This document shows, one piece after another, positions 26,797 to 48,901 of a stretch of 64,000 bases of DNA. The first letter of the stretch is position 1; the number at the start of each line of letters is the position of its first letter. The translations under genes and the position numbers were made by a program. This DNA is from Mucilaginibacter defluvii. GTDB taxonomy: Bacteria; Bacteroidota; Bacteroidia; Sphingobacteriales; Sphingobacteriaceae. The stretch covers positions 275,193 to 339,192 of the forward strand of contig NZ_BAABJI010000001.1 of the NCBI RefSeq assembly GCF_039543225.1, read 5' to 3'. Under the pieces are notes generated by a model that worked only from the letters and a program-made list of their open reading frames with translations, made no database searches and had not been told where the DNA came from.

Positions 26797-28032
26797 ATGA
26801 GAAACTTACAGATCACTACACGCTGGTTAAATAAAGAGCAAAAAACGCTCAAAACTACGTTGGAAGAAGCCAGTGTTCCGGAATTAAGGCAAGGTGAAAT
26901 TTTAGTTGAAATGCTTGCCATACCTATGCACGGAAGCTTTTGGCTGGCCTCGCACCCGGATGGTATACACCCGCGTCGTGATGAGTTTATGATTGATGAC
27001 GAATTTGTTTTTGGTAACGGTGGCGTTGGCCGTGTTATCCGCTCAAATGCTGATGCGCGCGAGATAGCCGAAGGTGATTATGTAACTGTATTTGGCCACG
27101 TGCCCTGTGAGCATTACGATTGCTACGCCTGTACTGTGTTACACCGTTATACCGAGTGCGACTACGGCGAGAGTACCATCATAGGCCACGGTAAGCACAG
27201 CTACGACGGCTCATACGCCAAATACGTAGTATTGCCAAAATACTCGTATGAGATATGCTACCGTAAACACGAAAACCCGACCATACAACAGTTAATGCCT
27301 TTCATGTTCGGCTTTTTAATTGCCGATGTGCGTAACGCGCTTACCCGCCATGCCGATTCATTACGTATGCGCAGGTTGCTTTTAGTAGGTTCAGGTTTTT
27401 CTGGCTTGATAGCCGCTTATATACACAACCGTACCTGCCCTGAATCAAGAATATTTGTTTTGGATTCATCAGAAGAGCGTTTGGCGGTGATAAAAGCCAT
27501 CGATCCGGAATCTATAGAAACTTATGTATTGCCTGAAGAGATTGTAGGCGAGTTGAACAACAAACAGCAAAGCCTTGGTTTCAGGCACGAACTGAACAGC
27601 AGCATTGAAGATATCGCCAAAAAAATGAAAGCTCATTTTGGTGGCCGTGGTTGTAACCTATTGTTCGATAGTTCATCAGGTAATACAGCGCCGATCTGGG
27701 ATAACAAAAATATATTGAGCCCGTCAACACACTGTATACCTTTCGGTTTCGGTTCGCACTACATCCTGTTGAATAAGGATCTGATCCAGTTTTCAGGTTT
27801 GAATATCATGATGTCTCGCGGAGTGGGTAACATTCGTAACCGTAAAGAGGTAATTGAGTTGATAAAGGCCGGTGCGAGCGCGTTTATTGAGGAGCACCTG
27901 ATTGAGCCGGCCATACGTTTGCAAGGTTTGGAAGAAGGAATAAAATATATTGACGAAATGCATAATCCGCCAAGGCCACTGCACCAGGTTGGTCATGCAT
28001 ACATTATTCCGAATCCTAACTTCAATGGGTAA
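26797..28032 (+). CDS. MDR-family (zinc alcohol dehydrogenase-like) oxidoreductase
   Basis: A 411-residue medium-chain dehydrogenase. The GroES-like half has GEILVEMLAIPMHG and the cluster CEHYDCYACTVLHRYTEC, spaced loosely like a structural zinc site. The nucleotide-binding half has LLLVGSGFSGLIAAY. Substrate unknown; it is longer than usual and I place it only at superfamily level. Its stop overlaps the next start (TAATG), and it heads a coupled set with a glycosyltransferase, an Ldh-family enzyme and a cytidylyltransferase. A role in oxidising or reducing a sugar precursor is an inference. Confidence 0.7.
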   Translation: MRNLQITTRWLNKEQKTLKTTLEEASVPELRQGEILVEMLAIPMHGSFWLASHPDGIHPRRDEFMIDDEFVFGNGGVGRVIRSNADAREIAEGDYVTVFGHVPCEHYDCYACTVLHRYTECDYGESTIIGHGKHSYDGSYAKYVVLPKYSYEICYRKHENPTIQQLMPFMFGFLIADVRNALTRHADSLRMRRLLLVGSGFSGLIAAYIHNRTCPESRIFVLDSSEERLAVIKAIDPESIETYVLPEEIVGELNNKQQSLGFRHELNSSIEDIAKKMKAHFGGRGCNLLFDSSSGNTAPIWDNKNILSPSTHCIPFGFGSHYILLNKDLIQFSGLNIMMSRGVGNIRNRKEVIELIKAGASAFIEEHLIEPAIRLQGLEEGIKYIDEMHNPPRPLHQVGHAYIIPNPNFNG

Positions 28033-28901
28033 TGAGGATTGACTTGTTACTTCTGATGTACAATCGTCCGGAGCACACGTTAAGTACGCTTGAGGGATTG
28101 GCGGCCAATGGCATAGCGCACGTTAAAGCCTATTTGGATTACTCGGACAAACCCGAAGTGATCGAGAACCAAAAGCAAATACTTGACATTGTACACAACT
28201 TTAAAGGACTGAACATTACGCTTACCCAGCGTACCGAAAAGTTTGGCCTTGCAAAAAGTGTACGTACGGCCATGAGCGACGCGTTTGCTGATGGAGCTGA
28301 TGCTGCTATATTGCTGGAGGATGATTGTGTATTAAGACCGGGGGGCTATGAATTTTTCAGGCAAGGCCTTACCGAGCTGAAGGATAACAAGAAAATACGG
28401 AGCCTTTGTGGCTACCTGTTTCCGAATTGTAACTTTATATTTGATCCGGAAGCTGATTTATTGTTGCTCAACCGCTTTTCAACATGGGGCTGGGCAACAT
28501 GGGCGGATAGATGGCAGCAGTACGAAGTTGACCTGGCAAAAGTGGTATCGTTATTTGATACAATCGGCTTTTCGATAGAGGATTTCTCGACCGATATGGC
28601 CATCCTCTCAAAATCTGAAAAGTTTTTGAAAGGCCAGGTAGATATATGGAGCGTGAGCTGGATATTGCTGCATTATCTAACATCCACCTTTGCGGTATAT
28701 CCAAAGGAGGCTGTGATAGACAATATAGGGCTTGATGGTAGCGGCGCCAATTGCGAAGATACAGAGGTTTTTAAAACAGGTAAATCAAACGCTGTTATTA
28801 ACCAATACAATTGGAAAGGGCTCAACTACTTTTTGGAAAACGAGGAAATTATTAAAGAGTTTATGGCCATTAACGGCTTAAAAACATATCCGAAACCATA
28901 A
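28032..28901 (+). CDS. GT-A type glycosyltransferase
   Basis: A 289-residue cytoplasmic glycosyltransferase: MRIDLLLLMYNRPEHTLSTL at the start, a metal-binding acidic block LLEDDCVL, and a WGWATWADRW motif seen in several capsule glycosyltransferases. Donor and acceptor are unknown. The start overlaps the preceding stop, and its stop overlaps the next start, both as TAATG, so translation of the three genes is probably coupled. Confidence 0.8.
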   Translation: MRIDLLLLMYNRPEHTLSTLEGLAANGIAHVKAYLDYSDKPEVIENQKQILDIVHNFKGLNITLTQRTEKFGLAKSVRTAMSDAFADGADAAILLEDDCVLRPGGYEFFRQGLTELKDNKKIRSLCGYLFPNCNFIFDPEADLLLLNRFSTWGWATWADRWQQYEVDLAKVVSLFDTIGFSIEDFSTDMAILSKSEKFLKGQVDIWSVSWILLHYLTSTFAVYPKEAVIDNIGLDGSGANCEDTEVFKTGKSNAVINQYNWKGLNYFLENEEIIKEFMAINGLKTYPKP

Positions 28902-29974
28902 TGGAAAACGTTACAGAATCAGCTATAAATGTAAATGCAGCAGCACTGGAGGCCTTTGCCCAAAAGTTGTTGCTTGCCGCCGGTTTTGATGGACTTTCGT
29001 CGCGCACAGCGGCCGAGGGTTTGGTGCAGGCATCATTACGCGGTGTTGATTCGCATGGTATACGGTTATTGCCTCATTATGTAAAGGCGCTAAAGGCCGG
29101 GCGTTTAACCCCACAGCCAGAATTTAAATTTGAACAGACGGGGCCAACCACCGGCATCATCAATGCCGACCATGCACTGGGTTTCCCGGCAGGCCAAACA
29201 GCCATTGATAAGGCTATGGAGATTGCTGCCCAACAAGGTATGGCCGCGGTAACGGTTACCAATTCGTCGCATTGCGGTATGTTGGCGTACTATACCATAC
29301 AAGCCGCCAAAAAAGGCTTTTTTGCTTTAGCGGTAACTAACACCACGCCGAGGCTTATCCCGACAGGTTCAAAAAAGGCATTTCTAGGTACTAACCCATT
29401 TTGTTATGCCTTTCCGTTGCAAAACGAAGAGCCGCTATGTTATGATGCCGCTACTACGCAGATTACCGGTAATAAAATACAATTATACCGCCAGTTAGGG
29501 CTTGCCTTACCTGATGGTGTAGCTGCCGATAAGGATGGCAACATCACCACTGATGCTAAATTAGCCGAGCTGTTGGTGCCATTTGGAGATTATAAAGGCT
29601 TTGGGATTGCTTTGCTGGTAGATATACTTTGCGGCGCGCTATGCGGTATGCCTAACGGCGACCAGGTAAGTGCCATGTACGGTGCCGATATATCAGGTAA
29701 AAGACTGCTTGGTCAGTTTTACCTGGTATTTGATATCAACCGCTTCAGGCCGCTACAGGCTTTTGCGCAGGAACTGCAGGAAGAAATGGACCGCCTGCGT
29801 GCATTGCCATCCGTTGATGGCCGCGCTATAATGGCTCCTGGCGATCCGGAAAAATTGATCAGTGCTGAACGCGCTACATCAGGCATCCCTCTGGAGCCCG
29901 AGATTTTTGCATCGTTACAATCGGTTGCTGATGAACTGAATGTAACCGGAATTAATGAGATAATTTTAAACTGA
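28901..29974 (+). CDS. Ldh-family 2-hydroxyacid oxidoreductase (malate/L-lactate dehydrogenase type)
   Basis: A 357-residue NAD(P)-dependent enzyme of the Ldh_2 fold, unrelated to Rossmann dehydrogenases. The motifs GVDSHGIRLLPHYV (about residues 47-60) and SSHCGMLAYY with the catalytic His are present. Relatives act on malate, sulfolactate, ureidoglycolate or 2,3-diketogulonate, all at a 2-hydroxy/2-keto acid position. It is translationally coupled to the glycosyltransferase and lies 15 bases before a cytidylyltransferase, so its substrate is probably a sugar acid for a CMP-activated donor. That is an inference. Confidence 0.85.
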   Translation: MENVTESAINVNAAALEAFAQKLLLAAGFDGLSSRTAAEGLVQASLRGVDSHGIRLLPHYVKALKAGRLTPQPEFKFEQTGPTTGIINADHALGFPAGQTAIDKAMEIAAQQGMAAVTVTNSSHCGMLAYYTIQAAKKGFFALAVTNTTPRLIPTGSKKAFLGTNPFCYAFPLQNEEPLCYDAATTQITGNKIQLYRQLGLALPDGVAADKDGNITTDAKLAELLVPFGDYKGFGIALLVDILCGALCGMPNGDQVSAMYGADISGKRLLGQFYLVFDINRFRPLQAFAQELQEEMDRLRALPSVDGRAIMAPGDPEKLISAERATSGIPLEPEIFASLQSVADELNVTGINEIILN

Positions 29975-29989
29975 TATACATATCTTAAT

Positions 29990-30709
29990 ATGGAGAAGAA
30001 ATCAATAGTACTGGCTATTACACCGGCAAGGGGCGGCTCAAAAGGCGTTCCGCGTAAAAATATTATCGATCTGGGTGGAAAGCCACTTGTTGCACATACC
30101 ATTACACAGGCGAAAAAGGCCACGCTGATTGACGAGTATATTGTAAACAGTGAGGACGAAGAAATCCGTCAGGTAGCGGAAAAGTGGGGTGCCAATACCA
30201 TGACCCGCCCGGATATGTACGCCCATGACCAGATATTGCAGGAAGTTGATTTGTTGCTGAAATGGACCGTAGAGCAATTTGAGGAAGCTAACCCGGATAA
30301 GCACGTTGATATAGTAGTATTGCTATACCCGACAGCGCCGCTGCGTAATGTATCAGCTATTGATGCTGCTATTGATCTGGTGAAAAACCAGGGATATGAT
30401 TCGGCATTGAGCTTATACTATGATACCCGTTACCTATGGAGTGTAACCGACGAAGGAACTACAGTAGAACCGCGTAATTACGACCCAAACAAGCGTATGC
30501 CGCGCCAAAAAGAATCATGGAACCAATGGGCAGAGAACAAAGCCATTTATGCCACCAAGCGTGATATACTATTTTCTATCGGTCGTATCGGACCAAAATG
30601 CGGGTACGTAGAAATGGAAAAATGGCGCTCAATAGACATTGACGAACCTGTAGACCTAGAAATGGCTCGCGCCCTATATCAAGCTAAAAAAGACATACTG
30701 GATTCGTAA
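29990..30709 (+). CDS. NeuA-like cytidylyltransferase (module A)
   Basis: A 239-residue enzyme of the acylneuraminate cytidylyltransferase family, which transfers CMP from CTP to the anomeric hydroxyl of a 2-keto sugar acid. The nucleotide-binding loop ARGGSKGVPRKN is at residues 13-24 and LLYPTAPLRN is the mid-domain motif. No NeuB, NeuC or KdsA partner is seen nearby. Instead the neighbours are an Ldh-family oxidoreductase and an MDR dehydrogenase, so the substrate is unlikely to be ordinary sialic acid. Confidence 0.88.
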   Translation: MEKKSIVLAITPARGGSKGVPRKNIIDLGGKPLVAHTITQAKKATLIDEYIVNSEDEEIRQVAEKWGANTMTRPDMYAHDQILQEVDLLLKWTVEQFEEANPDKHVDIVVLLYPTAPLRNVSAIDAAIDLVKNQGYDSALSLYYDTRYLWSVTDEGTTVEPRNYDPNKRMPRQKESWNQWAENKAIYATKRDILFSIGRIGPKCGYVEMEKWRSIDIDEPVDLEMARALYQAKKDILDS

Positions 30710-30745
30710 TCATTACACTATTAGTAAGCAATTATTCAAAAGAAT

Positions 30746-32122
30746 ATGATCGTCGGCAAAGAATACAAAGACAAGTTTCTCCCCCACTGGGAAAAATGGA
30801 AACGCGTAACTTTCCGTGGTTATAATTATGGAGGGATAATTGCGAATGAGTTATCTCATCTTCATCACATAGATGGTAATGGTAAAAAATATAATCTTGC
30901 AGGCGAACTGAAATTTTTATTAAAAAGTTTGTTTTATAAGAACTTAAATTTACCAGTTTCTGTAACCAACATATCAGGTAATGCATCTTGTAGCAATACT
31001 ATTGGTTTTGTAATGGATGATGATAATCGTGGTGATTATTTAAAACAATGTGAATTTGTCTTAAATCAATTGAACGATTATAAAATACGTGTTTTTACAG
31101 TTGTTAAGGACGTTAAACTAAAAAAGCGATTTGCTTTTGGCTCAAGCATAAACAAGCTTATAATTGTAGTAAAAGTATTATCTAACGTATCAGTTAAAAA
31201 GTCCTTCAAGTCACAGTCATTATCAAAGAATATAAATCTGCTTGCCAAATGTCTTTTTTATTATGATGTGATTGAGAATATTAAACTAAACAAACTCTTA
31301 GATAATGTAGATTTATTGATTGCTTTCTCAGATATGAAGCAGTACGGTAATATCTTTGTCCAATCTGCAAAAATACAGGGTATAGTGACAGGGACATTAC
31401 AGCATGGTATATATATCAGGCACAAAGATGATCAATACTCTCAATCAGCTATTAATTATTTGAATTCACCTGCTGATTACTTATTGGGCTGGGGAGAAAG
31501 TATTGTAAACGTTTTTAATGTGGATGGTCAAACGGTTAAGAAAGTATTATTATCAGGCAGTTCTGTAAAAGACTATCAAATAGATGATTACTATACTACA
31601 ATGGACCAAACCAGATTGCCATCAAATAAATTCGTTGTGTTGTTCTCTCGAAGTACACTAAGGCAGTCAAATGCTGATATGCTTCGCATTTCGCAAATAG
31701 TTGCATCCGAAACGGGATATCGGTTTGATGTATTAATGCACCCTACTAATAAAATGGAGCATTATGAGTTTGATAAATGCACTAATCTTAATAAGATTTA
31801 TCAAGATTCATCATTATTACTAAAACTCATAGATGATTCTGACTTCTGTATTTGCCATTCTACTACTGTATATTTTACATCGTTGTTAAAACACAAAGCT
31901 TGTTTTAGGTACGAGGATAAATATTTTATTGATTATGGAGGACTTAATGATAAGTTCAGTGATGAAAAAGAGCTTCTCAACAAAATTACAGAAAGTGCTC
32001 ATTCTCTTGAAAACGATAAAAAGAAGCAGGTAGAAATGTTGCTAAAACATCAGTTTGGAAATATCGAATATTCTTATAAAAAAAGCATACAAACGTTATT
32101 AAATCAAGCCGTTAAAAGTTAA
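30746..32122 (+). CDS. Putative GT-B surface-carbohydrate transferase (CDP-glycerol/polysialyltransferase-like)
   Basis: A 458-residue protein without a confident family. The C-terminal half contains GTLQHGIY, LLGWG, and CHSTTVYFTSLLKHKACF, resembling the QHG and ST(x)n-E/K-P motifs of GT-B enzymes that use CMP- or CDP-linked donors such as TagF or polysialyltransferases. It follows a cytidylyltransferase by 36 bases, which would fit. The DNA is visibly richer in A and T than the genes on either side, as are the next two genes, suggesting lateral acquisition. Confidence 0.5.
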   Translation: MIVGKEYKDKFLPHWEKWKRVTFRGYNYGGIIANELSHLHHIDGNGKKYNLAGELKFLLKSLFYKNLNLPVSVTNISGNASCSNTIGFVMDDDNRGDYLKQCEFVLNQLNDYKIRVFTVVKDVKLKKRFAFGSSINKLIIVVKVLSNVSVKKSFKSQSLSKNINLLAKCLFYYDVIENIKLNKLLDNVDLLIAFSDMKQYGNIFVQSAKIQGIVTGTLQHGIYIRHKDDQYSQSAINYLNSPADYLLGWGESIVNVFNVDGQTVKKVLLSGSSVKDYQIDDYYTTMDQTRLPSNKFVVLFSRSTLRQSNADMLRISQIVASETGYRFDVLMHPTNKMEHYEFDKCTNLNKIYQDSSLLLKLIDDSDFCICHSTTVYFTSLLKHKACFRYEDKYFIDYGGLNDKFSDEKELLNKITESAHSLENDKKKQVEMLLKHQFGNIEYSYKKSIQTLLNQAVKS

Positions 32123-32145
32123 AATATATCTTGTAAAGACTGACT

Positions 32146-33228
32146 ATGAATAAAAAAGCCAGAGTAATTGCATTCTATTTGCCACAGTTTTATCCTATAC
32201 CTGAGAACGACAAATTTTGGGGGAAAGGTTTTACAGAATGGACGAATGTAGCGGCAGCTAAGCCTCTTTATAAAGGGCATCAACAACCGGTCATTCCCGG
32301 AGATCTGAGTTTTTATGACTTAAGATTGCCTGAAATAAGAGAAGCACAAGCTAAGTTGGCTAAAGAGCATGGTGTGGAAGCATTTTGTTACTGGCATTAT
32401 TGGTTTGGCCGTGGACGTCGTATTCTTGATCGTGTTTTTGATGAGGTAGTTAAATCAGGTACACCTGATTTTCCATTCTGTCTTGGGTGGGGTAACGAGA
32501 CTTGGTCAGGAATATGGCATGGTTCACCGGGTACTGTGCTTATAAAACAAGAATATCCTGATGTGAGGGACTTTGAGGATCATTTTAACACAATTTTACC
32601 AGCTTTTTTGGATAAAAGATATTTAACGGTAGACGGAAAACCTTTATTTCTCATATATCGTCCAGGAGATAAAGATTTCGATATACATCTTTTCGTTTCA
32701 ACATGGCAGCGACTTGCCAAGCAAAACGGACTCCCTGGCGTATATTTTGTTGGTGTACTCAATGGTAAGAAACCGTCTGAGGTAAGCATGGACGCTCTTG
32801 TGTCAAATGCAATTAGCCCTGTGGTAACGCAAGTAGAAAAGAAAAAATTTGGAAATATTCAAATGAAGGCTCGCCGAAAGTTTCCACTTTATAATTCATT
32901 TTTTCTACCGCGCCGCATATCGTATAAAGACTTTATTGCTCAGCAAGAAGCGGATGGATTACCTGAAGGCTATTTACCTAACATAGTGCCACGTTGGGAT
33001 AATACGCCCAGAAGTAAAAAAAGGGGAGTAGTACTAATGGACTCAACGGCTGAGCTTTTTGAGATACATGTTAAAAGCGTAATCAAATCAATCCAAAATA
33101 AACCAGAGCAGGAGCGTATAGCATTTCTTAAATCTTGGAATGAATGGGCTGAAGGTAATTACATTGAGCCTGATCGCGAAACTGAAAATTCATATTTAGA
33201 AGTTTTAAAAAAATGTGTTGAGGGTTGA
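32146..33228 (+). CDS. WbsX-family (GH99-like) polysaccharide biosynthesis protein
   Basis: A 360-residue protein opening RVIAFYLPQFYPIPENDKFW and GFTEWTNVAAAKP, then FCYWHYWFGRGRRIL and FLKSWNEWAEGNYIEPD near the end. These are hallmark blocks of the WbsX family, which resembles family 99 endo-mannosidases and occurs in O-antigen and capsule loci. The catalytic activity of WbsX proteins is unsettled; trimming or transfer of a glycan are both possible. It lies in the AT-rich segment. Confidence 0.85.
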   Translation: MNKKARVIAFYLPQFYPIPENDKFWGKGFTEWTNVAAAKPLYKGHQQPVIPGDLSFYDLRLPEIREAQAKLAKEHGVEAFCYWHYWFGRGRRILDRVFDEVVKSGTPDFPFCLGWGNETWSGIWHGSPGTVLIKQEYPDVRDFEDHFNTILPAFLDKRYLTVDGKPLFLIYRPGDKDFDIHLFVSTWQRLAKQNGLPGVYFVGVLNGKKPSEVSMDALVSNAISPVVTQVEKKKFGNIQMKARRKFPLYNSFFLPRRISYKDFIAQQEADGLPEGYLPNIVPRWDNTPRSKKRGVVLMDSTAELFEIHVKSVIKSIQNKPEQERIAFLKSWNEWAEGNYIEPDRETENSYLEVLKKCVEG

Positions 33229-33229
33229 T

Positions 33230-34252: not shown

Positions 34253-34256
34253 TCAA

Positions 34257-41882: not shown

Positions 41883-42707
41883 ATGAGTAGATGGAAGTAT
41901 ATTAAAACAGTAAAATTATCTGACTTATCCCTGCAACGGATAAAAAAGGTAATCATGAACCGTTTAAAATATATTCCACATTCCTTAGCCTGGAAACTCA
42001 ACACTGCCCCCGCCAAACAAAGCAAGCTTAATCTGGATAAATACCGTGATCTGCATAAAGGCAAACGTTGTTTTATTGTAGCTAACGGGCCGAGCCTTAA
42101 GGTGACAGACCTGAGCAGGCTGGATGGGGAATTTACCTTTGGCATGAACCGCATATATTTGTCCGGTTTTGAGCCTACATATTTGGTGGTTACCGATATT
42201 GAAACCATGTTGAAACAGTTTACAGATGAGTTTAGGGAGCGTAAAGGCCCTAAGTTTTATAACTGGCGTACCCGCAACTGGTTTAAGAACGTACCCGATC
42301 TTACTTTTATTAACCTTGATTATAACGCGCGCTTTTCAACCAATCTGAATGAATCGGGCTGGGGAGGGCATAGCGTAACCTTTTTGTGCCTGCAGTTGGC
42401 TTACCATATGGGCTTTAGTGAGGTAATACTTATAGGCAAGGATCACAGCTATAAAGGCCAGGGCGTACCTGGCCAGTTTGTTGCAGCTACAGATAAGGAA
42501 GAGAATCATTTTATAAAAGATTATATACCTAAAGGTAAAGGCTGGAAAATACCCGATTATAAGGGTGAAGAGCTGGCGTATGAACTGGCACGGGAGGCTT
42601 TTGAAAAAGATCGCCGCAAGGTGTATGATGCGACGATAGGGGGGATGCTCGATATTTTCGAGAAAAAGGATTATAACTCATTGTTTACTAAAGAACAACC
42701 GGCATAA
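41883..42707 (+). CDS. DUF115 / Maf-like putative glycosyltransferase
   Basis: A 274-residue protein with CFIVANGPSLKVTDLSRL (NGPSLK at residues 68-73) and LVVTD, the core of the DUF115 family that includes flagellin-modifying Maf proteins. Maf and GT42 sialyltransferases share this NGPSL nucleotide-binding feature, and Maf uses CMP-activated nonulosonic acids. It starts 33 bases before a cytidylyltransferase gene. The first ATG is used; ATG 41955 is an alternative. Similar proteins are also annotated as pterin-pyrophosphokinase-like. Confidence 0.7.
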   Translation: MSRWKYIKTVKLSDLSLQRIKKVIMNRLKYIPHSLAWKLNTAPAKQSKLNLDKYRDLHKGKRCFIVANGPSLKVTDLSRLDGEFTFGMNRIYLSGFEPTYLVVTDIETMLKQFTDEFRERKGPKFYNWRTRNWFKNVPDLTFINLDYNARFSTNLNESGWGGHSVTFLCLQLAYHMGFSEVILIGKDHSYKGQGVPGQFVAATDKEENHFIKDYIPKGKGWKIPDYKGEELAYELAREAFEKDRRKVYDATIGGMLDIFEKKDYNSLFTKEQPA

Positions 42708-42739
42708 GCTGGCAACATCATAGTTCAAATAAATTATTA

Positions 42740-43438
42740 ATGAAATACGTAGCTGAGATTCCTGTACGATTAGGAAGCAAACGGGTCCCAAAGAAAAATC
42801 TCCGTTTAATTAACGGTAAGCCAATGGTGGGTTATGCTATTGAAGCCTGCAAGGGCTCCAAATACATCAGCGAAACCTATATCAATTCCGAAGCTGACAT
42901 TATGAAAAAATTGTGCGATGATTATGGCGTGCAGTTTTACAAACGTAAGGATGAACTGGCCGAGGATCATATCGTTCAGGATCAGTTTAACTACGATTTT
43001 TTATTGAATATTGATACCGAAAACCTGGTAATGGTTAACCCGGTATCGCCACTGGTATTGCCGGAGGATATCGACAGCGCCATTAAGTACTACGAGGATA
43101 ACCAACTGGATTGCCTGATCTCGGTACGCGAGGAAAAATTACAGTCGTTTTTAGACGGTAAGCCCATCAATTTTAACGATCAGGCATTACTGCCTATGAC
43201 ACAAAACCTGAAGCCGGTACAGCTTTGTGCCTGGACGGTTTGTATATGGAACGCCAAAAAGTTTATTGAGCATTATGAACAGCATGGCTACGCGGTGTTT
43301 GTAGGCAATTATGGCTTATATCCGTTTGACCCGGTACGCTCAATAAAAGTAAGCACCGAAGAAGATTTTAAACTTGCAGAATTATACCTATCAGCAAAAT
43401 CAGCTAACGCTGAAGTAACACCCGAATATTATGAATAA
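42740..43438 (+). CDS. NeuA/KdsB-like cytidylyltransferase (module B)
   Basis: A 232-residue nucleotidyltransferase opening VAEIPVRLGSKRVPKKNL (Arg10 to Asn20), a variant of the ARGGSK-x-PxKN loop of CMP-sugar acid synthetases. VMVNPVSPLVLPEDI matches the family's mid-domain block. Only distantly similar to the module A enzyme, so probably a different substrate. Its stop overlaps the start of the following hydroxyacid dehydrogenase by eight bases, implying tight coupling. Confidence 0.82.
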   Translation: MKYVAEIPVRLGSKRVPKKNLRLINGKPMVGYAIEACKGSKYISETYINSEADIMKKLCDDYGVQFYKRKDELAEDHIVQDQFNYDFLLNIDTENLVMVNPVSPLVLPEDIDSAIKYYEDNQLDCLISVREEKLQSFLDGKPINFNDQALLPMTQNLKPVQLCAWTVCIWNAKKFIEHYEQHGYAVFVGNYGLYPFDPVRSIKVSTEEDFKLAELYLSAKSANAEVTPEYYE

Positions 43439-44351
43439 AGTATTGCTTTCACCTTCATCTTTTGGCGAATGTGGCTTACAGCCCATTGAATTGCTTGAAA
43501 ATGCAGGTTATACCGTTATAAATAACCCTTACAAGCGTAAACTTACCGAGGCCGAGGCTATTGAGCTGGCCAAGGATTGCGTAGGCATAGTAGCCGGTGT
43601 TGAACCGCTTACCGCCGCGGTAATGGATGCCCTGCCTGACCTGAAAGTGATTAGCCGTGTAGGTGTAGGTATGGACAGCGTTGACCTTGACCACGCTGCC
43701 AAAAAAGGCATCAAAGTGCTAAACACACCTGATGGTCCTACACGTGGCGTTGCCGAACTTACCCTGGCCATGACGTTTGCCATGCTGCGCAAAATACCGC
43801 AGGCTGATGCCGCCATGAAAAATAAGGTTTGGAAAAAGCAGACCGGTAACCTTATCATCAACAAAAAGATTGGTGTTATTGGTTTAGGTCGTATAGGCCG
43901 TATGGTAGCAGGTTTGTTCAGGGGTATTGGTAACCCGGTTATCGGCTTTGATCTTTACCCGGATACTGCATGGGCTGAGCAAGCCGGTGTTGAAATAGCC
44001 GATTTTGAAACCGTGATTTCGCAAGCCGATATTATTACGGTACACGTACCTGGCAATGCCGATAAATCAGCGGTGATAGGCGCTAAGGAATTTGAAAAAA
44101 TTAAGGATGGCGCATTCCTGGTTAACATAGCCCGTGGTGGTGTTGTTGATGAGGAAGCTTTGTATAACGCGCTTAAATCAGGCAAACTATCTTCAGCAGC
44201 GGTTGATGTTTATAACAAAGAGCCGTATGACGGGCCGCTTTGCGAGTTAGATAACATTATACTTACGCCGCACCTGGGCTCGTACGCTACCGAAGGCAAG
44301 TTGCAGATGGAGATAGACGCGGCTCAAAATTTAATTGACGCCTTAGCGTAA
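43431..44351 (+). CDS. D-2-hydroxyacid dehydrogenase (phosphoglycerate dehydrogenase-like)
   Basis: A 306-residue NAD-dependent enzyme without the C-terminal ACT domain of SerA. GLGRIG at residues 151-156 with Asp174 binds NAD, and the catalytic Arg235 (ARGG), Glu264 (NKEP) and His281 (TPHLG) are all present. In context, overlapping a cytidylyltransferase and next to sugar-modifying genes, it more likely oxidises or reduces a sugar acid at C2 than makes serine. Phosphoglycerate is still possible as substrate. Confidence 0.85.
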   Translation: MNKVLLSPSSFGECGLQPIELLENAGYTVINNPYKRKLTEAEAIELAKDCVGIVAGVEPLTAAVMDALPDLKVISRVGVGMDSVDLDHAAKKGIKVLNTPDGPTRGVAELTLAMTFAMLRKIPQADAAMKNKVWKKQTGNLIINKKIGVIGLGRIGRMVAGLFRGIGNPVIGFDLYPDTAWAEQAGVEIADFETVISQADIITVHVPGNADKSAVIGAKEFEKIKDGAFLVNIARGGVVDEEALYNALKSGKLSSAAVDVYNKEPYDGPLCELDNIILTPHLGSYATEGKLQMEIDAAQNLIDALA

Positions 44352-44355
44352 CGGC

Positions 44356-44877
44356 ATGAGCGGCTTATCGGGCAAGTTAAAAGCTGATATAAAGCAGTTG
44401 CGTGGAAAGGACAGGAAACCTTTGCCGGTACTCTTTTTAACAAAAAAGAATTATCGTATTGTTATTCTGTACCGCATACTTAACCATTTTCACAAAAGCA
44501 CTTTGGCGTCGCTTTTATTATTGCCGTTAAGCTTATACTATAGGTTAATGACCAACAGGTACTGTGTTGACCTGCCGGTTGACACGCCGATAGGGGAAGG
44601 ATTGAGGCTTAATCACTGCTATTGCGTGGTTGTTAACCGTAAAGCCATCATTGGTAATAATGTATATATAGGGCATAGTGTAACTATCGGCTCAAATGGT
44701 GACAGGTACCCGGTTATTGGTAATAACGTATTAATAGCTCCCGGTTGCCTTATTATAGGGGATGTTAAAATTGGCGACAATGTAATTATCGGCGCCGGCA
44801 GCCTGGTGGTAAAGGACGTTGAAGCCAACTCAATAATAGGCGGGCACCCGAGCAAATTTTTGCGGGTAAAAGAATAA
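44356..44877 (+). CDS. Serine acetyltransferase-like hexapeptide-repeat acyltransferase
   Basis: A 173-residue left-handed beta-helix protein of the CysE-like colanic-acid/WcaB type. Hexapeptide turns include IIGNNVYIGHSVTIGS and KIGDNVIIGAGSLVVKDV, ending with IIGGHPSKFLRV. It probably O-acetylates a glycan or sugar intermediate; true serine acetyltransferases are longer. It starts four bases after the dehydrogenase. Confidence 0.8.
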   Translation: MSGLSGKLKADIKQLRGKDRKPLPVLFLTKKNYRIVILYRILNHFHKSTLASLLLLPLSLYYRLMTNRYCVDLPVDTPIGEGLRLNHCYCVVVNRKAIIGNNVYIGHSVTIGSNGDRYPVIGNNVLIAPGCLIIGDVKIGDNVIIGAGSLVVKDVEANSIIGGHPSKFLRVKE

Positions 44878-44915
44878 CACACACACACAAGGAAAATATA
44901 AATTATTAAACAAGT

Positions 44916-45908
44916 ATGAACTTAAAAGTTGGTATTATTGGTTACGGTGTAATGGGTAAAACCAGGCACCAGGCTATTGACGAACTGAAATGCGGCAAAG
45001 TTATCGCGGTATCTGAACCGAATAACCAGCCCGAAATTAATGGCTTACCCAATGTTGACCATGACGGGATCATCAAACATCCCGATATCGACATTGTATT
45101 TGTTTGTACACCAAACTTTTTGAACAAGGATCTGACCATTCGCTCCCTGAACGCGGGCAAGCACGTTTTTTGCGAAAAACCTCCGGCTTTTACCGAAGCT
45201 GATGTGGCCGAGATACGCGAAGCCGAAGTAAAAAGCGGCAAAAAACTGATGTACGGTTTTAACCACCGCCATCATGACAGCGTTATCCGCATGAAGGAAC
45301 TGATAGACAGTGGCGAGTATGGCAAGGTGTTATGGCTGCGCGGCCGTTACGGCAAAAGCGTTACTGCCGACTACTTTAACCAATGGCGCGCTAAAAAAGA
45401 GCTGGCCGGTGGCGGCATCCTGATGGACCAGGGTATACACATGCTCGATTTGTTCCTGTACCTTTCTGGCGATTATGACGTAGTTAAGGCCGAGGTATCA
45501 AACCTGTACTGGCACATGGATGTGGAGGATAACGCCTTCGTTATCTTAAAAGATACCAAAACTGGTAAGGTAGCATCACTGCATTCCACCATGACCCAAT
45601 GGCGTCATCTGTTCTCGCTGGAGATATTCCTTGAAAAAGGTTATATGGTATTGAATGGATTGATCACGTCAACCATGTCATACGGCGAAGAAACCCTTTC
45701 GATAGCCCGTAACCGCTCAACCGCCCCTGCCGCTACCTGGAAAGACGAGGTTACCACCAAGTATACCAATAACAATAGCTGGCGTTACGAGGTTGACCAC
45801 TTTTTTGATGCGGTTACCAAAGATCAGCCGGTGGTCATCGGCACGTCTGACGATGCTCAAAAATTAATGCGAATTATTGACGAAGTATACAAACAAAAAG
45901 ACTTTTAA
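44916..45908 (+). CDS. Gfo/Idh/MocA-family sugar dehydrogenase
   Basis: A 330-residue Rossmann enzyme: GYGVMGKTRHQ binds NAD(P), CEKPPAF carries the EKP motif, and GGGILMDQGIHMLDLF holds the catalytic-region His. Family members oxidise or reduce sugars, nucleotide sugars or inositols; WlbA/WbpB relatives act on UDP-GlcNAc-uronate and recycle NADH with 2-oxoglutarate. Here it is flanked by a CysE-like acetyltransferase and a SIS isomerase in module B. The exact substrate is not deducible. Confidence 0.88.
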   Translation: MNLKVGIIGYGVMGKTRHQAIDELKCGKVIAVSEPNNQPEINGLPNVDHDGIIKHPDIDIVFVCTPNFLNKDLTIRSLNAGKHVFCEKPPAFTEADVAEIREAEVKSGKKLMYGFNHRHHDSVIRMKELIDSGEYGKVLWLRGRYGKSVTADYFNQWRAKKELAGGGILMDQGIHMLDLFLYLSGDYDVVKAEVSNLYWHMDVEDNAFVILKDTKTGKVASLHSTMTQWRHLFSLEIFLEKGYMVLNGLITSTMSYGEETLSIARNRSTAPAATWKDEVTTKYTNNNSWRYEVDHFFDAVTKDQPVVIGTSDDAQKLMRIIDEVYKQKDF

Positions 45909-45920
45909 AAACAATCAATC

Positions 45921-46517
45921 ATGGATAGAAAGAACACCGTAACCGAACACTTAGTTAGCTACAAACAAAAGATCGTTGATCTGCTTGACCTGATCGATCC
46001 GGCTGAGCTTGAGCAGGTAATAACTGTTTTTATCGATACATTTAAAAACGGTAAAACTGTATATGTTGCCGGTAATGGCGGCAGCGCTGCTACTGCATCA
46101 CACATGCAGGCCGATTTCCGTTTCTTCGTGCGTTATTTCTCAAAATTCCGCCCACGAATACTGGCCCTTACTGACAACGCACCATTGATGACCGCTGTTG
46201 GTAACGATACCGACTTTAACGATATTTTTGTTGAGCAGATGCGCGGCGTATTTGGCGAAGGCGATACCTTGGTTGTTATTTCAGCAAGCGGTAACTCAGA
46301 AAACCTGGTTCGCGCGGTTGATTTTGCTAACGAGCAAGGTGGTAACTCTATATCATTTATCGGCTTTAAAGGCGGTAAACTAAAAGAGAACAGCAAATAC
46401 AAAATTTATACGCCAAACCAGGATAAAGATTACGGCCCGATCGAGGATATTCACATGATCATCAACCACATCATTGTGAATTACCTGGCTAAGGACGAAG
46501 AATTTTTAAGCCTGTAA
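45921..46517 (+). CDS. SIS-domain sugar-phosphate isomerase (GmhA-like)
   Basis: A 198-residue SIS protein. GNGGSAATASHMQADF, VISASGNSENL and EDIHMIINHII match phosphoheptose isomerase (GmhA), which converts sedoheptulose 7-phosphate to D-glycero-D-manno-heptose 7-phosphate. The same fold serves arabinose 5-phosphate isomerase. It lies 12 bases after the Gfo/Idh gene and before a phosphatase, so it probably supplies a phosphorylated aldose that is then dephosphorylated. Confidence 0.87.
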   Translation: MDRKNTVTEHLVSYKQKIVDLLDLIDPAELEQVITVFIDTFKNGKTVYVAGNGGSAATASHMQADFRFFVRYFSKFRPRILALTDNAPLMTAVGNDTDFNDIFVEQMRGVFGEGDTLVVISASGNSENLVRAVDFANEQGGNSISFIGFKGGKLKENSKYKIYTPNQDKDYGPIEDIHMIINHIIVNYLAKDEEFLSL

Positions 46518-46538
46518 TTATAAGCAACCGCTGTATAA

Positions 46539-47306
46539 ATGGATAAAGAATTAGCTAAGCAAAGCCTCGATGCCGCTGTAAAAGCAGCCACTAAAGCCGG
46601 GAACGCATTAAGAGAATTATTGAGTGCTGATATTAAAATTAACAGCAGCGTAGGTAAGGACATTAAGCTGGAGGCTGACCTGGTGGCCGAAAAGGCGATA
46701 TTGGATACACTGCATGCCGAGTCGGCATTCGGTATACTGAGCGAAGAGGCGGGTGAAGTGCTGAACGCGGATGGTACCAAAGGCGACTCGCAGTACCAGT
46801 GGATTGTTGACCCATTAGATGGCAGCCTTAACTTTTCGAGAGGTATTGATATTTTTTGTACCTCAATAGGGTTATGGAACGGCAGCGAGCCGGTGTTAGG
46901 CGTGGTGTATGATTTTATGCACGGCAGGCTATTTACCGGTATAGTAGGCGAGGGTGCCTGGCTTAATGGCGATGCCATCAGCGTAAGTGCTATAGCCGAG
47001 AAAAAGGACAGCATTCTGGCTACCGGCTTCCCTGTTTATCTGAAGTTTGATACAGCGGTTCTGCAGGATTTTGTTAAAAATATTCAGGATTATAAAAAAG
47101 TGCGGCTATTTGGTTCGGCAGCAACATCACTGGCCTATGTGGCCAAAGGCAGCGTTGAGGCTTATGCCGAAAACAACATTGCTGTTTGGGATGTGGCTGC
47201 CGGCCTTGCACTTGTTTTGGCCGCCGGCGGCAAGGCCGATATCAGCAACGGTACAGGCAAAAACTTTCTGAACGTTTATGCTTACAACAGTTTAATACAA
47301 CAATAA
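46539..47306 (+). CDS. Inositol monophosphatase-family sugar phosphatase
   Basis: A 255-residue Mg-dependent phosphatase. The metal-binding motifs LSEEAG, IVDPLDGSLNF and VWDVAAG are intact. Relatives hydrolyse inositol phosphate, histidinol phosphate, fructose bisphosphate or 3'-phosphoadenosine derivatives. Its place after a GmhA-like isomerase and in a CMP-sugar module suggests it removes phosphate from a sugar intermediate, a role like GmhB or KdsC. Confidence 0.88.
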   Translation: MDKELAKQSLDAAVKAATKAGNALRELLSADIKINSSVGKDIKLEADLVAEKAILDTLHAESAFGILSEEAGEVLNADGTKGDSQYQWIVDPLDGSLNFSRGIDIFCTSIGLWNGSEPVLGVVYDFMHGRLFTGIVGEGAWLNGDAISVSAIAEKKDSILATGFPVYLKFDTAVLQDFVKNIQDYKKVRLFGSAATSLAYVAKGSVEAYAENNIAVWDVAAGLALVLAAGGKADISNGTGKNFLNVYAYNSLIQQ

Positions 47307-47309
47307 TAC

Positions 47310-47762
47310 ATGATCGTTGATTCACTCGACAACCTGGAGTTTTACAAAAACATCCACGAGGATATTTACCTGGGTTTAAGATTTATTAAAGGCCTGGGCG
47401 CTGATGTGGAGCCGGGTACTTATACCGTATCTCCAACGGCTAAAGCTATTGTAATGGAATACGGTACATCGTACGAAAACGATTTTGGTTACGAAACCCA
47501 CCGCCACGTTATTGATGTACAATACTGCATTGTAAATACCGAGCTTATACGCTGGGCGCATGTAGATACCCTTACCCCATACATCCCCTATGACGAGGAA
47601 AAAGACAGGCGTTTTTATAATAATGACAGCGGTAACTTTACCCCTGTGTTAACCGGCAACGGCATATTCGCGGTGTTTTACCCGTCGGACGGGCATGCAC
47701 CGCAGTTGTGTTTAAATGAGCCGGAGCAGATTAAAAAAGTGGTTATCAAAATTAAGTGCTGA
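47310..47762 (+). CDS. YhcH/YjgK/YiaL-family protein
   Basis: A 150-residue cupin-like protein of the family that includes NanQ (YhcH), an anomerase speeding ring opening of sialic acids, and EbgC. YETHRHVIDVQYCI and GIFAVFYPSDGHAPQL carry the family His/Glu metal ligands. Near a NeuA-like cytidylyltransferase this could equilibrate the anomers of a 2-keto sugar acid before activation. It starts four bases after the phosphatase. Confidence 0.83.
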   Translation: MIVDSLDNLEFYKNIHEDIYLGLRFIKGLGADVEPGTYTVSPTAKAIVMEYGTSYENDFGYETHRHVIDVQYCIVNTELIRWAHVDTLTPYIPYDEEKDRRFYNNDSGNFTPVLTGNGIFAVFYPSDGHAPQLCLNEPEQIKKVVIKIKC

Positions 47763-47770
47763 TAAAAAAT

Positions 47771-48901
47771 ATGGCAAAAAGTCACTATCTCCCCGCGCTG
47801 GATGGCCTCCGTGGCCTGTCGATCATGGTGGTATTGCTGGGCCACATCGGATTGAACATTCCGGGCGGGTTTGGCGTGAACGTATTTTTCTTTATCAGTG
47901 GTTTGCTGATCACTAACCTGCTGCTTATCGAGTACGACAAACACGAGCGTATCGATTTTAAGAATTTCTTTATCCGAAGGTTACTAAGGCTATACCCGCC
48001 TTTGCTGTTGATGATACTGGTTACCTGCATAGTGCCACCGTTAAATAAAGGTATCACTATGGATAAGGTCTGGCCGGCTTTATTTTATTACCAAAATTAT
48101 TATTACATAGCCAATTTTGAGGCTTTTCATTCAGGGGCAAGTAAGTCATATTTTGGCTTTATATGGTCATTGGCCATTGAGGAACATTTTTACCTGCTGT
48201 TCCCTTTCTTATTCGCGTTCCTGGTAAAAAACAAAAAAGCGCTTATTGGTATCACCGTTACCATTATTGTTTCGGCCTTAGTTTTCAGGTTAATAGGTAC
48301 TTACCGTTATGGTGTCAACCCTTTTGCGTTTGAATATTGCTACGCCGCAACCGAATGCCGGTCAGACGCGATTATGATGGGCTGCCTGGCCAGTATATTG
48401 ATTTATATTGACAGGGATAACCGCTTTTTAAAGTTTGTATCATCAGTACCTGTATTCGTGATCGCTTTTATTGCCATGTTGTTGAGCATCGTTATAAAAG
48501 ATCACTTTTTTAAACAGACCTTTATGTACACCATACAGAGCCTTAGTTTCATGATTATGATACCGGCTATTCTGTATGACAAGAAATATGAGTTTTTAAA
48601 CCGTTTTTTTTCGACCAAACCTTTGGTGTTTACCGGCCGGTTGAGCTATTCGCTTTATCTTTTCCACCTAATATTTTACAGGTTGGAGGTTGCGTACATC
48701 TCTAATGGTAAAAAGGATATGCTATATTATATACTCGGTATCCCCGGAGCATTCCTTTTAGCCACCATAAGCTACTACCTGGTTGAAAAGCCGGTAATGG
48801 GGCTCAGGCGGAAGTTCGGTTCGGTAGCCGGTAAAAATACCGACGCGCCCGCCGGTACTGCCATTCCGGAACATGAACCGCAGGTTGCCATTAAAAATTA
48901 A
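47771..48901 (+). CDS. Acyltransferase family 3 (OafA/YrhL-like)
   Basis: A membrane acyltransferase of about 376 residues. LPALDGLRGLSIMVVLLGHI, FGVNVFFFISGLLITNLLL and FIWSLAIEEHFYLLFPFL are diagnostic. The frame begins with GTG at 47756 inside the previous gene, but ATG 47771 gives the standard N-terminus. Last gene of the module B operon, ended by hairpins at 48911-48928 and 48939-48965. Confidence 0.88.
   Translation: MAKSHYLPALDGLRGLSIMVVLLGHIGLNIPGGFGVNVFFFISGLLITNLLLIEYDKHERIDFKNFFIRRLLRLYPPLLLMILVTCIVPPLNKGITMDKVWPALFYYQNYYYIANFEAFHSGASKSYFGFIWSLAIEEHFYLLFPFLFAFLVKNKKALIGITVTIIVSALVFRLIGTYRYGVNPFAFEYCYAATECRSDAIMMGCLASILIYIDRDNRFLKFVSSVPVFVIAFIAMLLSIVIKDHFFKQTFMYTIQSLSFMIMIPAILYDKKYEFLNRFFSTKPLVFTGRLSYSLYLFHLIFYRLEVAYISNGKKDMLYYILGIPGAFLLATISYYLVEKPVMGLRRKFGSVAGKNTDAPAGTAIPEHEPQVAIKN

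What the first reader, a model, noticed from the sequence alone, without database searches (positions are those of the whole stretch)
26797..48901. Two cytidylyltransferase modules that could make CMP-sugar acids by oxidation, without a condensing enzyme
Seen: module A (26797-30709) combines an MDR dehydrogenase, an Ldh-family 2-hydroxyacid oxidoreductase and a NeuA-like cytidylyltransferase. Module B (42740-47762) combines a cytidylyltransferase, a D-2-hydroxyacid dehydrogenase (overlapping it), a Gfo/Idh/MocA dehydrogenase, a SIS isomerase, an IMPase-like phosphatase and a YhcH-family protein. Known: NeuA/KdsB enzymes activate 2-keto sugar acids, and these acids are normally made by NeuB- or KdsA-type condensation with phosphoenolpyruvate. 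No such synthase is in the window. Inference: both modules share a logic of sugar dehydrogenase plus 2-hydroxyacid dehydrogenase plus CMP transfer. An aldose would be oxidised to an aldonic acid and then at C2 to a 2-ulosonic acid, which is activated without any aldol step. The two hydroxyacid dehydrogenases come from unrelated folds, suggesting convergent assembly of the same route.
Basis: partly seen in the sequence, partly recalled or inferred. Interest (0 to 1): 0.8.

Follow-up and report, generated by a model that had tools for sequence, protein, structure and literature searches.

The report
Aldol-free route to CMP-sugar acids
A Mucilaginibacter-like bacterium with no detectable sialic-acid-type (NeuB) synthase gene carries two gene sets that each combine a cytidylyltransferase gene with two dehydrogenase genes; they are predicted to make activated acidic sugars, likely for its surface polysaccharide, by oxidation alone instead of by joining carbon pieces, and one of the sets recurs in genomes of eight bacterial phyla.

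Summary
The 99.66%-complete Mucilaginibacter-like genome has no NeuB match; its one KdsA has one KdsB to go with it, so cytidylyltransferases (CTs) A and B have no recognised synthase partner. Module B is a real cassette: around 28 CT-B relatives, D2HDH is nearby in 23, Gfo in 23, SIS in 21; in 13 non-overlapping NeuB loci each is in 0. Relatives carry either an IMPase (9 of 28) or an AroB-like phospholyase (14), never both full-length; trees need several swaps. Both enzymes remove phosphate. All 14 AroB-like proteins keep 3-dehydroquinate-synthase residues, some recalled as carboxylate-binding, that the genome's EboD lacks; their substrate is likely a 2-ulosonate phosphate, made by SIS, Gfo and D2HDH. 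Module A is thinner: the three nearest divergent Ldh_2 relatives in the genomes sampled lie close to a CT and a Gfo gene. Problems: CT-B has K-x-S where CT-A's family has D-x-D; one unassigned pyruvate-aldolase-family gene exists elsewhere; no activity is shown.

The parts
26797..28032 (+). MDR (zinc-type) dehydrogenase, module A
   Evidence: ADH_N 30.3 bits (cut-off 23.5); weak threonine 3-dehydrogenase/scyllo-inosose dehydrogenase similarity, none over cut-off
28032..28901 (+). ORF inside module A, glycosyltransferase-like by eye
   Evidence: open frame of 289 aa, 0 Pfam families
28901..29974 (+). Ldh_2-family 2-hydroxyacid dehydrogenase, module A
   Evidence: PF02615 335.5 bits; best solved relative ureidoglycolate dehydrogenase 1xrh (1.5e-59)
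29990..30709 (+). CT-A, NeuA/PseF-like cytidylyltransferase with intact SIDID motif
   Evidence: PF02348 74.2 bits; PseF 98.7 bits, cut-off 205.7 not reached; best solved relative murine CMP-Neu5Ac synthetase 1qwj; motif
41883..42707 (+). MptE-like (PF01973) protein just upstream of CT-B; possible Maf-type transferase of the CMP-sugar (inferred)
   Evidence: 44.7 bits; weak PseD (flagellin modification) similarity, E 3.2e-4, far below cut-off; a relative near CT-B in 13 of 28 loci
42740..43438 (+). CT-B, cytidylyltransferase with IKVSTEEDF in place of a DID..D motif
43431..44351 (+). D2HDH, D-2-hydroxyacid dehydrogenase (PGDH-like), overlaps CT-B by 8 bases
   Evidence: 2-Hacid_dh_C 177.9 bits; R, E, H triad present; nearest solved relative phosphoglycerate dehydrogenase 1wwk
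44356..44877 (+). hexapeptide acyltransferase (accessory; also in L067-L069)
44916..45908 (+). Gfo/Idh/MocA dehydrogenase, predicted to oxidise C1 of the aldose
   Evidence: best solved relative aldose-aldose oxidoreductase 5a02 (1.8e-28), then DgpA and glucose-fructose oxidoreductase; EKP and DQGIHMLD motifs
45921..46517 (+). SIS isomerase, GmhA-like with a D/E active-site signature
46539..47306 (+). IMPase-family phosphatase; in other relatives an AroB-like phospholyase + SDR stands instead
   Evidence: 171.4 bits; SEE, DPLDGS and WD motifs
47310..47762 (+). YhcH-family protein, predicted ulosonate anomerase
   Evidence: DUF386 101.7 bits; TIGR00022 71.5 bits (cut-off 45.5), NF040884 68.6 bits (cut-off 160 not reached)

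Best explanation
Module B (42740-47762) is a gene cassette, found in genomes of eight phyla, that is predicted to convert a ketose phosphate into a CMP-activated 2-ulosonic acid with no carbon-carbon condensation. Predicted order: the GmhA-like SIS isomerase would move the carbonyl from C2 to C1 (sedoheptulose 7-phosphate to heptose 7-phosphate is the likeliest case); Gfo would oxidise C1 to the acid (via the lactone); D2HDH would oxidise C2 to the ketone, giving a 2-ulosonate phosphate; IMPase would remove the phosphate; YhcH would equilibrate the anomers; CT-B would add CMP to the C2 hydroxyl; and a neighbouring MptE-like protein may transfer the sugar. The isomerase-oxidation-oxidation trio would in effect turn C1 of a ketose into a carboxylate. 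In the sister version an AroB-like phospholyase plus an SDR stands in place of IMPase and would close a carbocycle on the same ulosonate phosphate. Module A (26797-30709) is predicted to follow the same logic with an MDR (Gfo in relatives) and an Ldh_2 enzyme. Shown here: gene content, conservation, mutual replacement, residue patterns and lack of a NeuB match. Inferred: every reaction and the sugar.
For: (1) No NeuB or DAHP_synth_2 match in the genome; one KdsA and one KdsB; CT-A and CT-B are left without a recognised synthase. (2) 28 CT-B loci: D2HDH 23, Gfo 23, SIS 21, all three 19; 13 NeuB-centred loci that do not overlap them: 0, 0, 0. (3) IMPase in 9 of 28, AroB-like in 14, both full-length in 0, neither in 5; quick trees of Gfo, D2HDH and CT-B need 5, 7 and 5 label changes, of which starred branches force 4, 6 and 4. 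Both enzymes release phosphate, so the CT would see a phosphate-free substrate in either version. (4) All 14 AroB-like proteins keep K250/R264/N268 (A. nidulans DHQS numbering and roles recalled), as the genome's true AroB and an H. pylori DHQS fragment do; its EboD has H/S/D there. A DAHP-like 2-ulosonate phosphate is thus the likely substrate, yet the cassette has no PEP-condensing synthase of its own. (5) Gfo's best solved match is an aldose-aldose oxidoreductase; D2HDH, Gfo and IMPase of the window keep their catalytic motifs. (6) E. coli YhcH is a shown anomerase of N-acetylneuraminate and Kdn (PMC8141875: start of abstract, passages). (7) The CT-B model's best Foldseek matches are CMP-Neu5Ac, CMP-Kdn, CMP-Kdo and CMP-Pse synthetases. 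(8) Module A.
Against: CT-B's clade has K-x-S for the D-x-D metal motif (119 of 120 homologues), so its catalysis may differ or be lost. The SIS misses the GmhA cut-off (101.9 vs 209.45 bits) and has D/E for GmhA's E/Q, so its substrate may not be sedoheptulose 7-phosphate. A second DHDPS-family gene of the genome (C2:155612, far from both modules) reaches no DapA, NanA or KDG-aldolase cut-off: a pyruvate aldolase supplying a 3-deoxy-ulosonate is not excluded; other aldolase families were not searched. YhcH also occurs in AroB-like versions (L075, L076, L090, L147), where an anomerase for the end product would be pointless. L080 has an IMPase-like fragment (89 aa, 40%) beside CT-B as well as an AroB-like gene. 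The D2HDH of L071 (184 aa, next to CT-B) and of L080 (224 aa) are short and lack part of the triad. One of the 13 control loci, L154, has an AroB-like match at its edge. Gfo enzymes can oxidise other carbons, and D2HDH enzymes often work as reductases. NeuB is present in 18 of 24 other CT-B genomes. All relatives are compared by sequence only, many from metagenome-assembled genomes.
Confidence: 0.5

Rival explanations
1. CT-B (and perhaps CT-A) is a CTP:sugar-phosphate cytidylyltransferase: it makes a CDP-linked sugar or sugar acid from a phosphorylated intermediate, and the dehydrogenases then edit the nucleotide sugar.
For: CT-B lacks the D-x-D motif found in the CT-A family. A cytidylyltransferase that uses a sugar phosphate, followed by an oxidoreductase, is known for CDP-6-D-glucitol in Campylobacter jejuni (PMC10918830, abstract and opening paragraphs read).
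Against: The cassette carries a phosphate-removing step in two interchangeable forms. Relatives of CT-B with DID sit in the same cassette. The best structural matches are CMP-ulosonate synthetases; IspD and GlmU rank lower.
Confidence: 0.15
2. The cassette makes a cyclitol rather than an ulosonic acid: Gfo is an inositol-type dehydrogenase, IMPase supplies free inositol, AroB-like + SDR supply a deoxy-inositol, and the CT activates the cyclitol or a derived acid.
For: Gfo also resembles inositol 2-dehydrogenase (NCBIfam 104.3 bits, below cut-off). IMPase family. The AroB-like proteins belong to the AroB-type sugar phosphate cyclase group.
Against: No role for the 2-hydroxyacid dehydrogenase or the SIS isomerase. 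The AroB-like proteins keep the DHQS residues, unlike the EboD of the same genome.
Confidence: 0.12
3. The CTs activate an ordinary acid (Kdo from the genome's KdsA, a scavenged sialic acid, or a product of the unassigned DHDPS-family lyase), and the dehydrogenases belong to unrelated decorations of the polysaccharide.
For: One KdsA is present; an unassigned DHDPS-family gene is present; NeuB can be missing in scavengers; the YhcH family is known from sialic acid use.
Against: A KdsB over its cut-off is present elsewhere. CT-A and CT-B reach no KdsB or PseF cut-off. CT-B is tied to D2HDH, Gfo and SIS in genomes of 8 phyla, which unrelated decorations would not explain.
Confidence: 0.13
4. CT-B's K-x-S clade has lost catalysis and serves as a scaffold or substrate-binding partner, with CT-A or another enzyme doing the activation.
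For: K-x-S instead of D-x-D in 119 of 120 homologues. A second CT occurs in some DID-type clusters (L147, L088).
Against: The N-terminal R-x-G-S and K-N positions are invariant in the 18 aligned homologues. In L070 and L076 no second CT of this family was found in the 20 kb.
Confidence: 0.1

Closest known systems
NeuB-dependent CMP-nonulosonate pathways (Neu5Ac, Pse, Leg, Kdn)
   Same: A NeuA/PseF-family cytidylyltransferase; a phosphatase; an anomerase-family protein; genes inside a surface-polysaccharide cluster.
   Different: No NeuB match in the genome. The acid is predicted to come from oxidation of an aldose phosphate, not from PEP condensation.
Kdo pathway (KdsD-KdsA-KdsC-KdsB)
   Same: Same four-part layout: SIS isomerase, acid-forming step, phosphatase, cytidylyltransferase.
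   Different: Two dehydrogenases stand where the PEP-condensing KdsA would be; KdsA and KdsB exist separately in this genome.
Epd/PdxB step pair of pyridoxal 5'-phosphate synthesis (recalled)
   Same: An aldose phosphate is oxidised at C1 and then at C2 by a D-2-hydroxyacid-family dehydrogenase to a 2-keto acid phosphate.
   Different: Four-carbon vitamin pathway; Epd is a GAPDH-type enzyme, not Gfo; no nucleotide activation.
TIGR04425, 'AroB-related putative sugar phosphate phospholyase (cyclizing)' (NCBIfam)
   Same: This is the protein that stands in place of IMPase in sister cassettes; six of the seven scanned here (of 14) pass its cut-off.
   Different: Not in the window; NCBI's model is a hypothetical equivalog whose name gives no substrate beyond 'sugar phosphate'.
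CDP-6-D-glucitol pathway of C. jejuni (PMC10918830)
   Same: Unusual cytidylyltransferase paired with an oxidoreductase in a capsule cluster.
   Different: Uses a sugar phosphate and makes a CDP-alditol; reduction, not oxidation (abstract).

Membership tests
CMP-ulosonate synthetases (NeuA/PseF/KdsB type) | CTP_transf_3 domain over the Pfam cut-off | tested here: met
   CT-A 74.2 and CT-B 64.4 bits, cut-off 22.6
CMP-ulosonate synthetases (NeuA/PseF/KdsB type) | N-terminal R-x-G-S-K...KN nucleotide motif | tested here: met
   PARGGSKGVPRKN in CT-A, PVRLGSKRVPKKN in CT-B
CMP-ulosonate synthetases (NeuA/PseF/KdsB type) | C-terminal D-x-D metal ligands | tested here: not met
   Met by CT-A (DxD in 119 of 120 listed homologues; P0143 is truncated); not met by CT-B (K-x-S in 119 of 120; P0116 is truncated). 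The ligand role is recalled.
CMP-ulosonate synthetases (NeuA/PseF/KdsB type) | Score over a named NCBIfam model (PseF, KdsB) | tested here: not met
   Best: PseF 98.7 (CT-A) and 59.3 bits (CT-B), cut-off 205.7
CMP-ulosonate synthetases (NeuA/PseF/KdsB type) | Activity with a 2-ulosonic acid and CTP | not testable with these tools
   needs an assay
NeuB-dependent nonulosonate pathway | NeuB gene in the genome or beside the CT | tested here: not met
   0 of 1 own genome; NeuB near CT-B in 3 of 28 loci. In L075 and L082 it sits beside another, PseF-type CT; in L143 it is about 11 kb away
GmhA sedoheptulose 7-phosphate isomerase | NCBIfam gmhA cut-off and E65/Q172/H180 residues | tested here: not met
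   101.9 vs 209.45 bits. D and E at the E65 and Q172 columns in 23 of the 25 SIS ORFs of these loci, window included; the other two (L076:7146, L085:1899) keep E and Q. H180 is kept in the window but replaced in L075, L080, L086 and L148. Numbering recalled.
YhcH/NanQ anomerase | Subfamily TIGR00022 cut-off; equivalog NF040884 cut-off | tested here: inconclusive
   71.5 bits vs 45.5 (met); 68.6 vs 160 (not met)
D-2-hydroxyacid dehydrogenase | R-E-H catalytic triad and NAD-binding domain over cut-off | tested here: met
   177.9 bits; R, E, H in the window and in every relative ORF of 270 aa or more; the four shorter ORFs (L071:9426, L072, L080, L087) are incomplete
Gfo/Idh/MocA aldose 1-oxidoreductase | EKP lysine and D-x-x-x-H motif; nearest solved relatives oxidise an aldose at C1 (recalled) | tested here: inconclusive
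   Motifs met in the window and all listed relatives; best solved matches aldose-aldose oxidoreductase, DgpA, glucose-fructose oxidoreductase; the substrate was not tested
DHQS-type phospholyase (in sister cassettes only) | K250/R264/N268 and ten further DHQS active-site positions | tested here: met
   14 of 14 at every position except K197, which is H in 7 of 14. Numbering and roles recalled.

The most novel reading that the evidence does not exclude
Bacteria own an exchangeable biosynthetic cassette that makes CMP-activated acids without condensation and can close the ring in two ways. With IMPase the product is a CMP-hept-2-ulosonate, and with the AroB-like phospholyase plus SDR it is its true carbocyclic analogue (a quinate-like carbasugar with the same carboxylate and tertiary hydroxyl), both activated by one cytidylyltransferase family. 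CMP-linked carbasugars in bacterial envelopes would be a new class of activated sugar.
Probability: 0.3. Interest if true: 0.9.

Novelty: new variant of a known kind. Interest (0 to 1): 0.7.

Why it matters
Every CMP-activated ulosonic acid of known origin that I can recall starts with a PEP condensation or is modified from such a product. A condensation-free route would explain orphan NeuA-like genes, add a predictable family of acidic surface sugars in eight phyla, and give the NCBI 'putative phospholyase' TIGR04425 a testable substrate. CT-B also has close homologues in Campylobacter jejuni, C. coli and C. lari (57-62% identity); whether these carry the rest of the cassette could not be reached here. 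Seven full-text searches of the PMC library held here were aimed at such a pathway, and their listings (titles and abstract starts; one search listed only 20 of 2,636 papers) showed none describing it; subscription papers were not searched.

Tried and rejected
Own-genome NeuB/KdsA as hidden partner: NeuB and DAHP_synth_2 give no match, KdsA has a KdsB. Plain Kdo activation by CT-A or CT-B: unlikely for that reason. Pyruvate aldolase as source: not rejected; of two DHDPS-family genes one is DapA and one is unassigned. NeuB linkage as a general feature of CT-B: rejected, 3 of 28 loci. Module A in wider sampling: three of the weaker Ldh_2 relatives were looked at (G200, G624, G514; about 10-12 kb each) and have no CT nearby; the other weaker ones were not examined. 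A Fisher test of IMPase versus AroB-like exclusivity gives p = 0.0006, but the loci are not independent, so I rely on the trees, which are of the quick kind. The notebook says 8 of 14 AroB-like proteins have K197H; the table shows 7, and 7 is used here.

Rows dropped or chosen before counts: L091 (30-residue match only) of the 25 loci; of 45 plasmid records (20 listed) only the two top-ranked were fetched (L142, L143); L147 and L148 are the next-best genomes after G099, whose contig is the same as L076's. L067 and L068 are near-copies of the window. Matches covering under 40% of the query were ignored, which hides the L080 IMPase fragment. Of 19 NeuB control loci, 6 share sequence with test loci and were set aside (L164 for a single 60-mer); in the full 19 the counts are D2HDH 2, Gfo 3, SIS 3, IMP 0, AroB-like 2. 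The controls were the stronger NeuB hits (19 of the 32 matches).


Full report
OBSERVATION. The window lies in a Mucilaginibacter-like genome (G000, 4.66 Mb in 4 contigs, 99.66% complete; nearest relatives by CT-B Mucilaginibacter sp. UR6-1 and M. roseus). Within module B the gaps between genes run from -8 to 38 bases, within module A from -1 to 15, as in operons.

NO RECOGNISED CONDENSING PARTNER. NeuB (PF03102): 0 matches in the genome, while the control genomes ring in 9 of 14. DAHP_synth_2: 0. DAHP_synth_1: two genes, one a KdsA over its cut-off and one best matching DAHP synthase (below cut-off as the fragment scanned), about 3 kb from the true AroB. CTP_transf_3: four genes, namely KdsB over its cut-off, an IspD-like one, CT-A and CT-B. 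DHDPS family: two genes on another contig, DapA over its cut-off and one that reaches no cut-off; the second is the one open door for an aldolase. Other aldolase families were not searched.

MODULE B IS A CASSETTE. A scan of one genome for each of 84,980 species with a CT-B alignment gave 25 loci; 24 of these plus two plasmid loci and two from the phylum search make 28. Within the fetched stretches D2HDH is found in 23, Gfo in 23, SIS in 21, all three in 19, YhcH in 11, a Cyclase-family hydrolase in 10, an MptE-like protein in 13 and NeuB in 3. Loci with all three come from Bacteroidota, Cloacimonadota, Fibrobacterota, Omnitrophota, Neomarinimicrobiota (Fidelibacterota), Pseudomonadota, Bdellovibrionota and Bacillota (record titles and ranks; several are metagenome-assembled). 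Control: 19 loci centred on NeuB in genomes that also carry CT-B; 13 do not overlap the test loci and hold 0 D2HDH, 0 Gfo, 0 SIS, 0 IMPase and 1 AroB-like (L154, at its edge). In an annotated Leisingera plasmid the same set is listed as Gfo, methyltransferase, SIS, inositol monophosphatase, NTP transferase and phosphoglycerate dehydrogenase. NeuB occurs somewhere in 18 of 24 CT-B genomes, 13 with E below 1e-60, and was not found in the other 6; completeness of these genomes is not told.

THE SWAP. Relatives of the cassette have either IMPase (9 of 28, plus the window) or an AroB-like protein (14 of 28) with an SDR gene next to it in 13 of the 14. None has both at full length; 5 have neither, three of them cut by a contig end close to CT-B (L072, L077, L079). 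One exception in part: L080 has an 89-residue IMPase-like match beside CT-B. Label changes on quick maximum-likelihood trees: 5 on Gfo, 7 on D2HDH, 5 on CT-B; starred branches force at least 4, 6 and 4. Within Mucilaginibacter, L070 has IMPase and L076 the AroB-like pair, with CT-B about 76% identical to the window's in both. The simplest common factor is removal of a sugar phosphate, by hydrolysis or by the phosphate elimination that AroB-type enzymes perform (established chemistry).

WHAT THE AROB-LIKE PROTEIN SEES. It matches NCBIfam TIGR04425, 'AroB-related putative sugar phosphate phospholyase (cyclizing)', over the cut-off in six of the seven scanned (L076, L088, L090, L075, L085, L083; L071 below; the other seven of 14 were not scanned). 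At 13 DHQS active-site columns (A. nidulans numbering and roles recalled; the one paper search for them gave nothing useful), all 14 proteins agree with the genome's own AroB and an H. pylori DHQS fragment except at K197, which is H in 7 of 14. The genome's EboD, a different member of the superfamily (PMC5133447, passages read; operon), has H, S and D at K250, R264 and N268. So the AroB-like substrate is likely a carboxylated, DAHP-like 2-ulosonate phosphate. No NeuB-type synthase belongs to the cassette; the genes in it that could build such a molecule are SIS, Gfo and D2HDH. The same trio stands in the window with IMPase.

THE OTHER ENZYMES. The SIS is nearest to GmhA, but 23 of the 25 SIS ORFs in these loci (window included) have D and E where GmhA has E65 and Q172. 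The two that keep E and Q, in L076 and L085, lie among GDP-heptose-type genes (by eye). So the cassette's SIS is a separate subfamily with an unproven substrate. Gfo's nearest solved relatives include aldose-aldose and glucose-fructose oxidoreductase. D2HDH is PGDH-like with an intact triad in the window; the D2HDH ORFs of L071 (next to CT-B) and L080 are short. IMPase motifs are intact in the window; L142 departs at one of four positions. The YhcH family includes a shown N-acetylneuraminate/Kdn anomerase (PMC8141875, abstract start and passages seen); the window's copy misses the anomerase equivalog cut-off.

CYTIDYLYLTRANSFERASES. CT-A has the usual SIDID motif; CT-B and 119 of the 120 listed homologues (the exception is truncated), including those of Campylobacter, have K-x-S instead. 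Most of the more distant CT-B relatives in the same kind of cassette have DID or DLD; L148 has neither. An AlphaFold2 model of CT-B (18 aligned sequences, mean pLDDT 85.1) matches CMP-Neu5Ac, CMP-Kdn, CMP-Kdo and CMP-Pse synthetases best. CT-B therefore works like, but does not fully belong to, the known synthetases: a tested feature is not met.

MODULE A. Ldh_2 searches over 395 and 385 sampled genomes give one near-copy (G726) and three divergent relatives at E below 1e-78 (G368, G459, G704; 40-45%). All three lie close to a CT of the CT-A/PseF type (52%, 33%, 34%) and to a Gfo/Idh/MocA gene. Three weaker relatives looked at (G200, G624, G514) have no CT nearby. NeuB was not found in G704, G726 and the window's genome; it is on other contigs in G459, and about 5 kb away in G368, fused to its own CT.

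MECHANISM. Predicted for module B: ketose phosphate to aldose phosphate (SIS), aldonate phosphate (Gfo), 2-ulosonate phosphate (D2HDH), 2-ulosonate (IMPase), anomer exchange (YhcH), CMP-ulosonate (CT-B), transfer (perhaps the MptE-like protein). A precedent for the two oxidations is Epd and PdxB (recalled). For a GmhA-type start the product would be a hept-2-ulosonic acid; in AroB-like versions a carbocyclic counterpart. Shown: genes, linkage, swap, residues, no NeuB match. Inferred: every reaction.

NOVELTY. The listings of seven library searches aimed at such a pathway showed no description (one search listed 20 of 2,636 papers); subscription papers were not covered. I rate it a new variant of CMP-ulosonate biosynthesis, with the carbocyclic reading as the bolder case. 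The late aldolase check moved 0.01 of weight to the ordinary-acid rival and left the main confidence as it was.

Noticed in passing
G000:C2:2248541-2254947 (L185:2542-8948): Six collinear genes, four of them with TatD, UbiA, DHQ_synthase and phosphodiesterase domains, look like an ebo operon (compare PMC5133447). Its AroB paralogue, called 3-dehydroquinate synthase by an NCBI model, lacks DHQS residues K250, R264 and N268.
   Followed up: partly
G000:C2:155612-156466 (L187): A second DHDPS-family gene besides DapA that reaches no NCBIfam cut-off among the models listed; a possible aldolase or dehydratase of unknown substrate.
   Followed up: partly
window 23207-23731; L080:8899-9444: An ORF starting MLETLITSKTRIKLLLKFF stands in the polysaccharide cluster and, with a very similar start (seen by eye), just upstream of the CT-B cassette of a Neomarinimicrobiota genome. 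The window copy has no Pfam match.
   Followed up: no
window 41883-42707 and 48989-50068: Two MptE-like (PF01973) proteins flank module B; the first has a weak match to PseD flagellin modification. They may be Maf-type transferases of the CMP-sugar.
   Followed up: partly
L077-L080, L082-L086, L147 CT-B ORFs (349-392 aa): Many distant DID-type CT-B proteins are about 120-160 residues longer than the window's, and a DUF4862 (PF16154) relative stands nearby in L080, L082, L085 and L087.
   Followed up: no
L069, L070, L073, L076, L090 and others: A Cyclase-family (PF04199) hydrolase is found in 10 of 28 CT-B loci but was not seen in the window; it could be a lactonase for the Gfo product.
   Followed up: no
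P0071, P0089, P0095 and others: Close CT-B homologues (57-62%) are common in Campylobacter jejuni, C. coli and C. lari (two entries list 1000 contigs each), named only acylneuraminate cytidylyltransferase or cytidylyltransferase domain protein.
   Followed up: partly
L144:14849-16639: A fused cytidylyltransferase-NeuB-SAF protein of 597 aa next to a HAD gene over the Kdn-9-phosphatase cut-off.
   Followed up: no
window 52016-53233: A DAO-family FAD oxidoreductase (L-2-hydroxyglutarate-oxidase-like by eye) lies within the polysaccharide cluster downstream of module B.
   Followed up: no
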